The notes under the pieces: model-generated
Database searches by the model: none
Told to the model about the DNA's origin: nothing
Seen by the model: only the letters and a program-made list of their open reading frames with translations
Shown: positions 30,287 through 54,890 of the stretch, piece after piece
Numbering within the stretch: position 1 is the first letter of the stretch
How the letters are laid out: each line of letters starts with the position of its first letter
Virus record (IMG/VR): IMGVR_UViG_3300037502_002960
Coordinates: 1-64,000 of that record
Origin: a virus
Length of the DNA stretch: 64,000 bases
Reading direction: 5' to 3' (one strand)
Program-made: the position numbers and the translations under genes

Positions 30287-30315
30287 AACTTTAACAAGCA
30301 CAACCTGTTAAAGTT
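30287..30315 (-). terminator. Terminator after the metallophosphoesterase gene
   Basis: A 10-bp stem (AACTTTAACA and TGTTAAAGTT) with a 9-nt loop overlaps the stop codon at 30308 and is followed on the minus strand by TATTTTTA. It partly separates the phosphoesterase gene from the packaging genes. Confidence 0.7.
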
Positions 30316-31525
30316 CAATTCTTATAGGGAGTATTCTGTCTTCTTCAAAAACAACAATTGATTGTGATGGTTTAGTATCATATCCAAGTTGAATACTGTA
30401 GTCTGTTGAACCTTGTAAACAACCACACCCTAATGTCATTCTACCGTGATTCTCTTCGTTGAAGCTCATATGATGAAAATGACCATAAATCAATAAATCA
30501 TAAAATTCATTATCTGACGAAATAAATTTATTAATTTTTTCTTTTGAAGTCTTTTTTAATAAATCACCGTGAACAGTTTTTACTTTTCTACCATTTACAT
30601 CAAAAGACATATCAAAATTACTATTCTTTTTATCAATAATTTTAATGTTTGGATTGCCGATTAAACTAATAAATGACTTGACGCTTGCATCAATAATATT
30701 TTCTGCACTATCACCAGAAATTGTTACAGCCTTATCATACATTCTTGAATGGTTACCAAGAACACTTCCAAGATATTCAACATCTAGCTCTTCTGCTAAA
30801 GTAAGGAGAAAAGAATTAACTATTTCTGTAGCCTTAACAATCTGTTCACTAAATGTAAATTCAATATCGTATGATTGTGTTGGTCTCATGTATCCACCCT
30901 CAACTAAATCGCCAACACCAATTACTTTAACTTTATTCACGTTAAATAATTTACAGTAATGAAACACCTCATTAGCATATTTCTCTACTCTTTTTTTTGC
31001 AATCTCATAATCATAACTATCTGTTTTTAATCCAATGTGCCAATCTGTCATAGGTACAACAATTTCATTTTCTGTAGTAACAAAATTATGTTTCTTGAAT
31101 TTTTCAAACTTTACATCTTTAAAATTATCAACCACCTCTTCAATAAAAAGAGTTTTGTCTATTACGTTTCTTTTAACTTTATTTAGCTCTCTGAATTGAT
31201 TTTGTGCGTTTCTTTTTGCGTAACTAAGTTCACCAACTAATTCTTTTATCGACTCTAGCTTGTTGTCGGAAACCATATCTACATACTTTGCCACTTCTGG
31301 TAATTCGCCAATAGATTTTTGATACCTTTTAATCAATTGTCTATATGTTTCACATCTATCAGAATTATCATAACCTTCTTTTTCCATCATCTTTTTATGT
31401 AAAGACCAATTACATTTACCACTTGGTGAAGCTTTTTGTAATTCTTTTTTGATTTTTACAGCAACATTTAAATGCTCTTCTGTTACAGTAATCTCTTCAC
31501 CTTTTTTATTTATATAACTTCTCAA
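30308..31525 (-). CDS. Calcineurin-like metallophosphoesterase
   Basis: The 405-residue protein has an N-terminal helical region (residues 1-150) and a C-terminal metallophosphoesterase domain with all family motifs: D-W-H-I-G near residue 166, G-D-L-V-E-G, G-N-H-S-R, H-G-D and Y-G-H-F-H-H. These coordinate two metals for phosphoester hydrolysis. The N-terminal half could bind DNA or a partner (K-A-S-P-S-G-K-C-N-W). It is read ahead of packaging genes. A similar gene sits near the packaging genes of SPbeta by my recollection. The substrate, perhaps nucleic acid ends, is unknown. Confidence 0.85.
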   Translation of the reverse strand: MRSYINKKGEEITVTEEHLNVAVKIKKELQKASPSGKCNWSLHKKMMEKEGYDNSDRCETYRQLIKRYQKSIGELPEVAKYVDMVSDNKLESIKELVGELSYAKRNAQNQFRELNKVKRNVIDKTLFIEEVVDNFKDVKFEKFKKHNFVTTENEIVVPMTDWHIGLKTDSYDYEIAKKRVEKYANEVFHYCKLFNVNKVKVIGVGDLVEGGYMRPTQSYDIEFTFSEQIVKATEIVNSFLLTLAEELDVEYLGSVLGNHSRMYDKAVTISGDSAENIIDASVKSFISLIGNPNIKIIDKKNSNFDMSFDVNGRKVKTVHGDLLKKTSKEKINKFISSDNEFYDLLIYGHFHHMSFNEENHGRMTLGCGCLQGSTDYSIQLGYDTKPSQSIVVFEEDRILPIRIEL

Positions 31526-31577
31526 AAACTATCACCTCAAATGTTCAGAATATTCAGAATATTTTAATTAAAAAAAA

Positions 31578-36552: not shown

Positions 36553-36597
36553 GTAAAAAATATACAATATTTCAAATATTCTGAATATTTTTTACCT

Positions 36598-36665: not shown

Positions 36666-37484
36666 TTGATTGAAATTTTGCATGAGATAAAGAGAATGTA
36701 TGGCGAGGCTTACATACAAGTACCAAATAAGATTTTCAAAAATATATCTTCTGTTACAAATGATTCTAGACAAAACTCATTTTGCTTTTCATATATAACT
36801 TTGTTAGGATTTCTGTATAAATATACTGCTTACGTAAATCCAAATTTAAATACATATGTACAGGCAAAAGATATAAAGACTTTATTGGGCTACAGTGAAA
36901 AAACAAAGACAATCAACAGGTTAATAAAGGAAAACGGTATTCTAGAGGACAAAGGTTTTATAAAAACAACAAAAAAGATACCTGTATACGTAAGTTATAG
37001 TGATGATGAAATAAACGGTTATAAAATTATAGAGTTTACAACATTAGATAATATAAAAAACAGAGAAGAATACGATATGTTTAAAAAAATTATAAAAAAC
37101 AGAAACTACAAAATTCAAGAACCGATATATCTTTTTAATGTTGACGGGAAACACGGTACTCTCTATGACTACTCTAACACATTTAAAATAAATATATCTG
37201 AGTTTATTAAATTTATCGAAAACAAAGAAATGGGTAACATGGACATTATGTTTTATTATTATATTAAAAGTCAAACACAGAACAAAAACCATAGAGTTGC
37301 CCCAATATCAATATCATTACTAGAAAAGAATATTGGTTTTTCTAATTCTTCAATCTACAAAACAATAACAAAACTAGAAAAGCTAAATTTAATTTCGGTT
37401 ACAAAGAAAGGTTGGCAAAACATAAAAGATGGTAATAACCCAGAGCCAAATGATTTTTTCTTGAGTTACTTTTTAAGCAGGTAG
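36666..37484 (+). CDS. Winged-helix protein, candidate replication initiator or regulator
   Basis: The 272-residue protein starts at TTG behind GGTGGTGAAA. Residues 1-110 contain a first winged-helix-like domain (V-Q-A-K-D-I-K-T-L-L-G-Y-S), and residues 180-255 a second (I-S-I-S-L-L-E-K-N-I-G-F-S-N-S-S-I-Y; K-L-E-K-L-N-L-I-S-V). Two such domains are typical of plasmid/phage initiators of the RepA-N/DnaD type. Its last codons and stop lie inside the left arm of the first long inverted repeat, so protein and DNA element may work as initiator and origin. A transcription regulator is the alternative. Confidence 0.6.
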   Translation: MIEILHEIKRMYGEAYIQVPNKIFKNISSVTNDSRQNSFCFSYITLLGFLYKYTAYVNPNLNTYVQAKDIKTLLGYSEKTKTINRLIKENGILEDKGFIKTTKKIPVYVSYSDDEINGYKIIEFTTLDNIKNREEYDMFKKIIKNRNYKIQEPIYLFNVDGKHGTLYDYSNTFKINISEFIKFIENKEMGNMDIMFYYYIKSQTQNKNHRVAPISISLLEKNIGFSNSSIYKTITKLEKLNLISVTKKGWQNIKDGNNPEPNDFFLSYFLSR

Positions 37485-51581: not shown

Positions 51582-51768
51582 TTTCTACCATTCCTTTCAA
51601 CTTCCATTTTTTGGAAAGAGTCTGTTTCTTTTGTTTCCCTCTTTCGTTACACTCATCATAGCATTGTATAAGGACTCTTGTCAAACGACCAACCGCAAAC
51701 CCTACAGCCCCAAGGGATACAGCTACTGTAAAAAATTTACATTGTATGAAATCGGTTGCACTATACAT
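51496..51768 (-). CDS. Doubtful small membrane protein overlapping the next gene
   Basis: A 90-codon frame begins with a hydrophobic segment (T-V-A-V-S-L-G-A-V-G-F-A-V-G) and a basic stretch, but its last 28 codons overlap the downstream gene in another frame and the start lacks a clear ribosome site. It may be a real short protein or chance. Confidence 0.35.
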   Translation of the reverse strand: MYSATDFIQCKFFTVAVSLGAVGFAVGRLTRVLIQCYDECNERGKQKKQTLSKKWKLKGMVENGKVKKVRSTCFGIRVYSFNFSRFNDWI

Positions 51769-51779
51769 AGTTATTCACT

Positions 51780-52733
51780 GTTTATTCACTTTTTAGCACA
51801 CCTGTCCCCACGAAAAACTGTATGCAAACGGTTGCGCACTAGGGGTATAAATTAAAAAAACTTTTGTGTGAACGAAAATAAAATAAACCGCTTCAACCCT
51901 ACAGCCCCAACGGCTCCAGGACTTGCGACCTTGTGAAATAAAAAATACTTTCATGAAACACTGTGCAACAATGATTTTTTTTATGTATATTGATGCATAT
52001 TCATACTATAAGCGCTTTCAAGAAGGTATACCCCTCCAGGTACTGAAAACCCTACAGCGCCAAGGGATTGAAGCACTTTTACCATTTTATGTATAATGTA
52101 TATCTGTGAATATTCATTGAATAACCATACGGGGTATTTTGATCCCTTTTCTTCTATATAATAGTGAAAAATCGTAACGAAACCAAGCCGAAAAACGCTA
52201 TATAATAGAAGAAACTCGGTAAGGACTTTTTACCCATAAAAACGCTGCCTTTATCGTGACTATATTCCCACATGAAACGCTGCGTTTTCTAGTTCAATAG
52301 TCACGCGCGTTTTAAAGCCGTTTTAAACCCCTCTGAGACGTTTTAAGCCTTCAAGGTACAAACACCTTAAGCAACCTTGTTTATACCCCTTTTCAAAAGT
52401 ACCCCACGGGGTATATACCCTAACGGGGTATATGTATTTTACTTGTGAACTTGACAAAATCGAAAAAGTGTGAACCCTTACTCTCCCAAGGGATACAGCC
52501 GTTTTTTAAAATAAAAAGTTTGTGAAAAATTTCGATACCCTAGGTGGTATATAAAAAAATGTACCTATACCCCTAGGGGTATCATATGGTTAAAAAATGT
52601 AAAAAATGGTATATTTTTTTAAAATTGTAAAAAAATAACTATCCATATAAGTTTACATTATTTTACTGTAAAAAAATAACTTATATATAAGTTTCCAATA
52701 TTTACCAATTTTAAAAAAGTTATTTTTTACCAA
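51780..52733. repeat. Gene-free region with clustered short motifs
   Basis: No gene is supported. Two motif families recur. CCCTACAGCsCCAA (near 51703, 51895, 52050, with a partial CCCAAGGGATACAGCC near 52488). TATACCCC or its complement GGGGTATA (near 51841, 52028, 52131, 52387, 52407-52436 as a back-to-back pair, 52540, 52568). CGTGACTAT/ATAGTCACG (near 52256 and 52308) also form an inverted repeat. These could be operator or iteron sites. Confidence 0.6.
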
Positions 52734-53290
52734 ATGAATTTTCAGACAATTCAGATAATTAAGAATATTCAAATAATTTTAAATTTTCAGAAAATTCATA
52801 ATAGTCAGAAAATTCAAAAAAATAAGATAATTCTAAATATTTTAAATTGTTAGAATATTCAGATAATTCAAACAATTATGACTATTCTTAATATTCTAAA
52901 TTTTCTGAAAATTCAAAAAATTCTGAAAATTCAAAAAATTCTGAAAATTAAGAATAGTCAGACAATTCTAAATTTTCAAACAATTATGAAAATTCAAACA
53001 ATTCATAATATTCATATAATTAAAAATTTTCAGATAATTCTAAATAATCTAAATTTTCAGATAATCCAAACAATTCATAATATTCTAAATAATCAGATAA
53101 TTCAAAAAATTCATAATTTTCTGATAATTCTAGCAGACCAAAAATGATCCATTTTTAATTATCAGAAAATTCATAATATTCAAACAATTCAGAAAATTCA
53201 ATTAATTAAATATTCAGAAAATTCAGATAATATAGCAAGTTTTCAGATAATTCATAATATTCAGACAATTCAGAATTTTCAAAAAATTCA
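52734..53290. repeat. Phased array of degenerate 9-bp repeats
   Basis: From 52742 to 53128 the sequence divides into 43 consecutive 9-bp units without a single indel, most matching TCAGAwAAT and a few recurring variants (TCATAATAT, TCAAACAAT, TCTAAATTT, TCTGAAAAT, TAAGAATAT). After a 33-bp break about 14 more units follow to 53290 with small phase changes. It is almost purely AT. One plus-strand frame from ATG 52734 is open except for one TAG and would encode a tripeptide repeat. Confidence 0.92.
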
Positions 53291-53564
53291 GCCCTGCGAA
53301 GCTTATTTTTAAATAATAAAATAAATAATAAATAAAAAATTAAATATAGATTCTCACCCCCTTATTAACAGCGAGCCTAAAATATTACGGGTGATTTTTG
53401 AAAATCAAAAAAATTTTTTGAAATTTTTTAAAAATTTGCTTCTATTATTAACAGAAACCCTAAAAAATTACGGGCAATTTTTGAAAGTTAAAAAATTTTT
53501 AAATTTTTCTTTCCTATATAATATAGAAGAAAAAAATATTTTTAAATTTTATACATATAATCTG
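53291..53564. repeat. Gene-free stretch with two ATTACGGG elements
   Basis: Two copies of a roughly 50-bp element (near 53362-53417 and 53443-53497) share ATTAACAG, CCTAAAA, ATTACGGG and TTTTTGAAA, followed by A/T runs. A third, diverged copy lies near 63535-63590. No gene is supported. Confidence 0.7.
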
Positions 53565-53593
53565 TTGACAAAAGACAAAGATAATGATATAAT
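53565..53593 (+). promoter_or_regulatory. Early-type promoter
   Basis: TTGACAAAAGAC, 17-bp spacer, TATAAT after ATGA. It drives the gene at 53627. Confidence 0.93.
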
Positions 53594-54257: not shown

Positions 54258-54890
54258 AAGTTGTAAAAGGTTTCAAGCTAATAAATAAATCAAAATTCTT
54301 TTATACCTTTTATATGCATATTATATTATAGTTTTTATGCACAAACAAATATATATAGTGCACTACAAACCTATATATGCACACATAATATGCATAATAC
54401 TATATATGGTATGATAAAAACATATATACACTATATATAGATTAAATCCATGAATATAAACCATTTTTACCCATATATAGACGAATTTTTACTACACATA
54501 CTACATGTAGTGTCTACATATAGGTTATACATACTACATATGGACATTTTAGCCAATTTTTGCTTAATAAAATTAACCTTTTATAAAATATATAAATTTT
54601 AGGTAAAATATATCCTAAAATTTATATAAAAGTATATATACTAATTCGTCGCCAGAAAACGGTTCGAGTTTCTACAGACTCTTATAAAACTGGTTATGTA
54701 TACCCCTATATTACCTATATGTGTGCCCAAAACCGTTTCAATTTCTACGGGTCGCCCAATTTTCTGATTGACCCCACCCCCTAAAAGGGTTTGAGTTTTT
54801 AAAACCGTTTCAAAATTATGAACCTATATGAAGCCAGAAAAGGGTTTGAAATTTTAAAATCAATTTGGAAAATAAAAACGATATACCCCG
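54258..54890. other. Gene-free region with repeats
   Basis: No gene is supported in this 633-bp stretch. The first half is rich in alternating TATATA and palindromic words such as TACATGTA. The second half has GCCAGAAAA(C/G)GGTT(T/C)GA copies near 54650 and 54833, a truncated one near 54785, and inverted AAAACCGTTTCAA copies near 54730 and 54800. Confidence 0.6.

What the first reader, a model, noticed from the sequence alone, without database searches (positions are those of the whole stretch)
52734..53290. 43 consecutive 9-bp units without an indel
Units diverge in sequence yet keep strict 9-bp phase for 387 bp, then continue for about 14 more after a 33-bp break. A small set of unit variants (TCAGAwAAT, TCATAATAT, TCAAACAAT, TCTAAATTT, TCTGAAAAT) recurs in varied order. 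Point divergence without length change implies selection for phase, either by a polymerising DNA-binding protein (initiator, partition or silencing) or by coding constraint. The location beside motif clusters and a strand-skew region makes an origin or centromere-like site plausible.
Basis: seen in the sequence. Interest (0 to 1): 0.82.

Follow-up and report, generated by a model that had tools for sequence, protein, structure and literature searches.

The report
Phage array of CodY-like binding sites
A virus that probably infects Bacillus-type bacteria carries, between two sets of oppositely transcribed genes, a run of about 50 overlapping copies of the DNA sequence that the host's nutrient-sensing regulator CodY recognises, spaced exactly as CodY dimers pack on DNA, which suggests that the virus reads or soaks up its host's nutritional signal.

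Summary
The array is real. The 43 in-phase 15-mers of 52737-53129 average 3.8 mismatches to the published CodY box AATTTTCWGAAAATT; the other eight phases average 8 or more. The window array holds 2 perfect, 8 at <=1, 16 at <=2 and 25 at <=3 mismatches; 500 shuffles never exceed 1, 2, 3 and 6. Of all 16,384 W-centred palindromic 15-mers, the CodY consensus scores first. CodY operators overlap by 6 nt, a 9-bp step, and cooperativity depends on it (PMC10415144), which explains the strict phase. Similar CodY-like arrays lie in divergent intergenic regions of Staphylococcus/Mammaliicoccus Sextaecviruses and of Bacillus phage P59, whose virion genes are different; no phage tested encodes CodY. Best reading: a host-CodY operator array that couples phage early transcription to GTP/branched-chain amino acid status, or titrates CodY, or both. 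CodY binding is predicted, not shown. Against: the array is directional, absent from the nearest cousins, and the host is inferred. I found no description of CodY box arrays in phages in the papers searched.

The parts
52734..53129 (+). Block 1: 43 units of 9 bp (consensus TTCWRAHWW) in one unbroken phase = 43 overlapping CodY-type 15-mers at 9-bp steps
   Evidence: mean 3.77 mismatches to AATTTTCWGAAAATT in phase, >=7.98 in the other 8 phases; 18 of 43 with <=3 mismatches
52782..52796 (+). Perfect CodY box AATTTTCAGAAAATT
52899..52913 (+). Perfect CodY box AATTTTCTGAAAATT
52737..52751 (+). AATTTTCAGACAATT, the same 15-mer as the predicted CodY site of the Streptococcus salivarius codY promoter
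   Evidence: PMC5966866
53130..53156 (.). Break in the array
53157..53290 (+). Block 2: about 10-13 further units in three sub-blocks (two phase shifts), with sites of 1 mismatch at 53157, 53209 and 53274
53355..53500 (+). Two direct repeats of about 85-95 bp (TTATTAACAG..CCTAAAA.ATTACGGG..ATTTTTGAAA) between array and rightward promoter; Sextaecviruses have two copies of a different element at the same place
53565..53593 (+). Sigma-A promoter, 12 of 12 (TTGACA-17-TATAAT with TG), of the first rightward gene; about 275 bp from the array end
51655..51684 (-). Leftward sigma-A-like promoter (11 of 12), at or near the first leftward genes
31540..31563 (-). Overlapping pair of CodY-like sites (9-bp step, 2 mismatches each) just upstream of the gene at 30308-31525
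36575..36589 (+). CodY-like site AATATTCTGAATATT abutting a TTGACA-17-TATAAT promoter upstream of the gene at 36666 (read by eye)

Best explanation
The array is a string of about 50 overlapping CodY boxes. In nutrient-rich cells, host CodY loaded with GTP and/or branched-chain amino acids would bind the strong sites, and cross-dimer contacts at 9-bp steps would extend binding along the weaker ones into a nucleoprotein filament over the divergent early control region. This would make phage early transcription respond to host nutrition. Because sites multiply as phage DNA replicates, the array would also titrate CodY and could derepress amino-acid uptake and synthesis genes. Shown here: the sequence match, the phase, the gene context, the recurrence in phages with different virion genes, and the absence of a phage CodY. 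Inferred: that CodY binds, the direction of the effect, and the balance between regulation and titration.
For: Counts versus shuffles. In-phase fit 3.77 versus >=7.98 mismatches. The CodY consensus is first of 16,384 palindromes, and first of the 896 that are A/T-only but for one C/G pair. Exact 15-mers of the array or of its relatives are listed as CodY sites elsewhere: AATTTTCAGACAATT, AATATTCAGAAAATT and AATATTCTGACAATT in S. salivarius (predicted upstream of genes in its CodY regulon table), AATTTTCAGAATATT in the pneumococcal ami promoter. Known geometry: 6-nt overlap, cooperativity lost with longer steps, sites with up to 5 mismatches functional, three dimers on ureA, longer oligomers proposed. 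Recurrence: Sextaecviruses F1, PG-2021_4 and DH5; Bacillus phage P59 with 44 sites versus 0 for the reversed pattern, clustered in early intergenic gaps; virus contigs G001 (49 versus 0), G005 (26 versus 0), L027, L166/L168. The period-9 pattern hits 27 viral stretches, the period-10 control 2; about half of the 27 lie inside long open frames and are not arrays. These phages have different portal/terminase genes (G000 shares with F1 mainly weak replication-protein similarity, with P59 mainly tail-fibre similarity) and none of G000, F1, P59, G001, G003 encodes a CodY HTH, so a shared host protein is the simplest binder. G000's cousins infect Bacillus and relatives.
Against: No binding data. The array is directional: of 43 units, 21 keep only the C of TCWGA and 6 only the G; a purely palindromic operator predicts symmetry. 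The host, and its CodY, is inferred from cousins. The array is absent from those cousins (vB_BcoS-136, FADO, PJN02, 2S-4) and from Sextaecviruses of S. epidermidis, S. hyicus and S. chromogenes, whose hosts should have CodY. A small similar run (L019) lies in a phage whose rIIA protein resembles those of Gram-negative phages. The array is 275 bp from the nearest strong promoter. The palindrome test is partly forced by base composition.
Confidence: 0.66

Rival explanations
1. CodY decoy: the array's main job is to soak up host CodY as phage copies accumulate, derepressing host nutrient acquisition, with no direct effect on phage promoters.
For: The number of sites (about 50) far exceeds known operators (2-3 overlapping); the strong rightward promoter is 275 bp away from the array; artificial decoy arrays titrate regulators in E. 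coli (PMC7826281, abstract).
Against: In P59 and at G000 36575 the sites sit next to promoters, and in G001 they are spread over about 12 kb, which looks like operators; many units are weak sites.
Confidence: 0.3
2. Iteron-like replication origin: a phage initiator binds the 9-bp units as direct repeats and opens the A+T-rich DNA.
For: A+T-rich (82%), directional repeats, divergent genes on either side, replication genes downstream on the right.
Against: No Rep or HTH domain in the flanking gene products scanned; DnaA boxes at chance level and none in the array; skew follows gene direction; unit and step match CodY's published site; the array is absent at the same place in related Sextaecviruses, which still must replicate.
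Confidence: 0.13
3. Operator array of a phage-encoded regulator whose motif happens to resemble CodY's.
For: Directionality; the separate palindrome cluster ATACCCCTAGGGGTAT beside it suggests that other regulators act here.
Against: Same motif and step in phages with different virion genes and no CodY HTH; exact identity of several sites to published CodY sites.
Confidence: 0.12
4. Partition centromere (parS or tubC type).
For: Arrays of short repeats load partition proteins; CodY and TubR dock their recognition helices similarly (PMC10415144).
Against: No ParA-type ATPase or tubulin-like GTPase in the 83-kb record, though the record may be a fragment.
Confidence: 0.03
5. Coding repeat: the 9-bp phase is three codons of a repetitive protein.
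For: One + frame of block 1 has a single stop in 132 codons.
Against: It does have a stop, lacks a ribosome-binding site, and is open because CWR-AHW-WTT contains no stop codon; first, second and third codon positions all vary; related arrays have other spacings.
Confidence: 0.02

Closest known systems
Overlapping CodY operators of Bacillota (hutP, ureA and others; PMC10415144, PMC4608796)
   Same: 15-nt AATTTTCWGAAAATT-like sites, 6-nt overlap (9-bp step), many imperfect sites beside a few strong ones, in intergenic DNA
   Different: Chromosomal operators usually have 2 (up to 3) overlapping sites; here 43 without a break plus about 10 more, on a phage; many units keep only the C half
Artificial transcription-factor decoy arrays (PMC7826281)
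   Same: Copies of a regulator's binding site that could titrate it
   Different: Natural, viral, and with overlapping sites; titration not shown
Iteron origins of plasmids and phages
   Same: Tandem, directional, A+T-rich repeats
   Different: Unit matches a host regulator's site, no Rep-like gene product found beside it, no DnaA boxes in it

Membership tests
CodY operator (overlapping type) | 15-nt sites close to AATTTTCWGAAAATT (functional sites have up to 5 mismatches) | tested here: met
   2/8/16/25 sites at <=0/1/2/3 mismatches versus shuffle maxima 1/2/3/6; first of 16,384 palindromes
CodY operator (overlapping type) | Neighbouring sites overlap by 6 nt (9-bp step) | tested here: met
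   all sites of block 1 in one phase of 9
CodY operator (overlapping type) | Palindromic core TCWGA kept on both sides | tested here: inconclusive
   13 of 43 units keep both C and G, 21 only C, 6 only G; Sextaecvirus arrays keep TCAGA more often
CodY operator (overlapping type) | Host encodes CodY | tested here: inconclusive
   host unknown; nearest phages infect Bacillus, Rosselomorea and Lactococcus; that these have CodY is general knowledge (B. subtilis and L. lactis rang as controls for the CodY HTH)
CodY operator (overlapping type) | GTP/BCAA-dependent CodY binding and effect on transcription | not testable with these tools
   needs EMSA/footprint and codY-null infection
Iteron replication origin | Initiator (Rep) gene beside the repeats | tested here: not met
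   no such domain in the flanking gene products scanned; an HTH_36 protein lies 16 kb away
Iteron replication origin | DnaA boxes near the repeats | tested here: not met
   4 in 64 kb, chance level, none in the array; nearest at 54335
Par/Tub partition site | Partition NTPase encoded by the same replicon | tested here: not met
   no AAA_31 or tubulin domain in the 83,359-bp record, which may be incomplete

The most novel reading that the evidence does not exclude
Several phage lineages of Bacillota have independently built long CodY-site arrays into their early control regions, using the host's master nutrient sensor, loaded as a cooperative filament, as a viral nutrient sensor and/or disarming it by titration.
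Probability: 0.45. Interest if true: 0.82.

Novelty: new variant of a known kind. Interest (0 to 1): 0.66.

Why it matters
If CodY binds, this would be a direct physical link between a host's GTP/amino-acid status and a phage's early programme, and a natural test bed for CodY polymerisation well beyond the three dimers seen so far. It gives a checkable reason why some phages of Staphylococcus and Bacillus should behave differently in rich and poor medium, and in codY-null hosts.

Tried and rejected
Coding repeat. RNA element (Rfam, none). Plasmid relatives of the array (none). Close relatives of the portal and of the 401-aa protein in IMG/VR (none confirmed). The genome-contig scan with the array pattern gave mainly scattered hits with few sites, not Bacillota-specific, so it says nothing about CodY. 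Searches of 395 Bacilli and 395 Bacteroidia genomes for four strong units found them only in the two seed genomes, which came from that pattern scan; the Bacilli sample was dominated by small genomes, so it is weak evidence that chromosomes lack such arrays. Looser pattern scans returned some simple repeats or coding sequence (L163, L165, L167), set aside. No report on CodY arrays in phages was found in open-access papers.

Full report
Observation. The region 52734-53129 is 43 units of 9 bp in one phase, followed by a break and about 10-13 more units to 53290 in three sub-blocks. Self-match at shift 9 is 0.613 against 0.364 +/- 0.023 in shuffles, with similar peaks at all multiples of 9 to at least 54. 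The unit read from the array is T T C W R A H W W. The array also matches its own reverse complement at 68%, as an array of near-palindromes would.

What the unit is. The CodY consensus AATTTTCWGAAAATT, overlapped with itself by 6 nt, gives the 9-bp unit TTCWGAAWW. In block 1 the 43 in-phase 15-mers have on average 3.77 mismatches to the CodY consensus; the other eight phases have 7.98 to 12.2 and not one 15-mer with <=3. Over the whole array there are 2 perfect sites, 8 with <=1, 16 with <=2 and 25 with <=3; shuffles of the same DNA give means of 0.01, 0.04, 0.18 and 1.3 and maxima of 1, 2, 3 and 6. Among all 16,384 palindromes X7-W-X7' the CodY consensus is first; among the 896 that are A/T-only but for one C/G pair it is also first, so a cautious chance figure is about 1 in 1000 before the coincidence of step length is counted (my estimate). 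PMC10415144 reports that CodY operators typically consist of two such sites overlapping by 6 nt, that two dimers touch across the shared half-site, that cooperativity is completely lost when the overlap falls to 4 nt and affinity falls already at 5 nt, that sites with five mismatches matter, that ureA takes three dimers, and that longer oligomers are expected. That accounts for a phase kept through sequence divergence. Individual array sites are identical to predicted CodY sites in the CodY regulon table of S. salivarius (PMC5966866); a 15-mer of the Sextaecvirus and P59 arrays is the pneumococcal ami CodY site (PMC4406557).

Genomic context. The record is an 83,359-bp linear IMG/VR contig. 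Its portal, RecD-like helicase and 401-aa protein are closest to Bacillus phages vB_BcoS-136, FADO, PJN02 and 2S-4. The array lies between leftward genes (RadC and others) and rightward early genes; by my reading of their sequences, SSB-, RecA-like, helicase-, primase- and RecJ-like products follow on the right. Rightward, two direct repeats and then a perfect sigma-A promoter follow. To the left, 52028-52582 holds all four window matches to ATACCCCNNGGGGTAT, probably another operator cluster. Two smaller CodY-like sites stand near other genes: a 9-bp-step pair at 31540/31549 and a site abutting a promoter at 36575.

Relatives. A distant search found the same kind of array in Sextaecviruses: in F1 it lies in the divergent intergenic region between genes 52 and 53, upstream of the sigma-like, thioredoxin, SSB and RecA-like genes; PG-2021_4, TPWB06 and DH5 have it too. 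The S. epidermidis, S. hyicus and S. chromogenes phages CF9, BE22, PMBT8 and PT1-1 do not, so it is gained and lost. Bacillus phage P59 has 44 sites against 0 for the reversed pattern; in the terminal repeat they form two clusters, one between divergent genes 025 and 027 (annotated gene 026 overlies it), with sigma-A-like promoters on either side by my reading. Virus contigs G001, G002, G003, G005, L027 and L166/L168 hold further arrays or clusters. G000 shares few proteins with F1 or P59 and none of the phages tested encodes CodY. A binder common to all is most simply a host protein.

Specificity controls. A period-10 version of the scan pattern hit 2 viral stretches, the period-9 version 27, about half of which lie in long open frames. 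A version with C and G swapped in the core hit 5, against 12 for the looser period-9 pattern, a modest excess. Locally, counts at <=3 mismatches in Sextaecvirus flanks are mostly no higher than for a core-swapped control, so only the clustering, the low-mismatch sites and the phase are informative there.

How it probably works. CodY, active in rich conditions, would nucleate on the strong sites and spread by cross-dimer contacts. Whether this represses, activates or insulates the divergent early promoters is open; sites beside promoters in P59 and at 36575 argue for regulation, the sheer number of sites for titration as well.

What does not fit. The asymmetry of C over G within the core, the absence of the array in cousins and a small similar run in a phage with Gram-negative-like rIIA (L019) keep the confidence at about two thirds. 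The host of this virus is inferred, and no binding has been shown.

Noticed in passing
window 52028-52582: All four window matches to the palindrome ATACCCCNNGGGGTAT (<=3 mismatches, 0.6 expected) lie in the intergenic DNA left of the array: a probable second operator cluster.
   Followed up: partly
window 53355-53500; L004:6205-6350: Two ~85-bp direct repeats between array and rightward promoter; Sextaecviruses have two copies of a different element (CTCATGATAAGAAAAA..AAATCGTGGGGG) at the same place.
   Followed up: partly
window 52626-52703: Two tandem ~40-bp repeats (TGTAAAAAAATAACTATACATATAAGTTTACAATATTTTAC) directly left of the array.
   Followed up: no
L160 / MT151604.1 9792-10307 and 12102-12365: Bacillus phage P59 carries two clusters of CodY-like sites inside its 13.3-kb terminal repeat.
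   Followed up: partly
L007 (G001, 38.6-kb virus contig): 49 CodY-like sites against 0 for the reversed pattern, spread over about the first 13 kb.
   Followed up: partly
L005 (PQ358086.1): TPWB06 is recorded as an Arcanobacterium phage, yet its early region is about 96% identical to Mammaliicoccus phage PG-2021_4; the host label may be wrong.
   Followed up: partly
L159, genome 72986-74435: Gene product that looks like a TnpB/OrfB-type transposon protein inside the phage's rightward genes (judged by eye).
   Followed up: no
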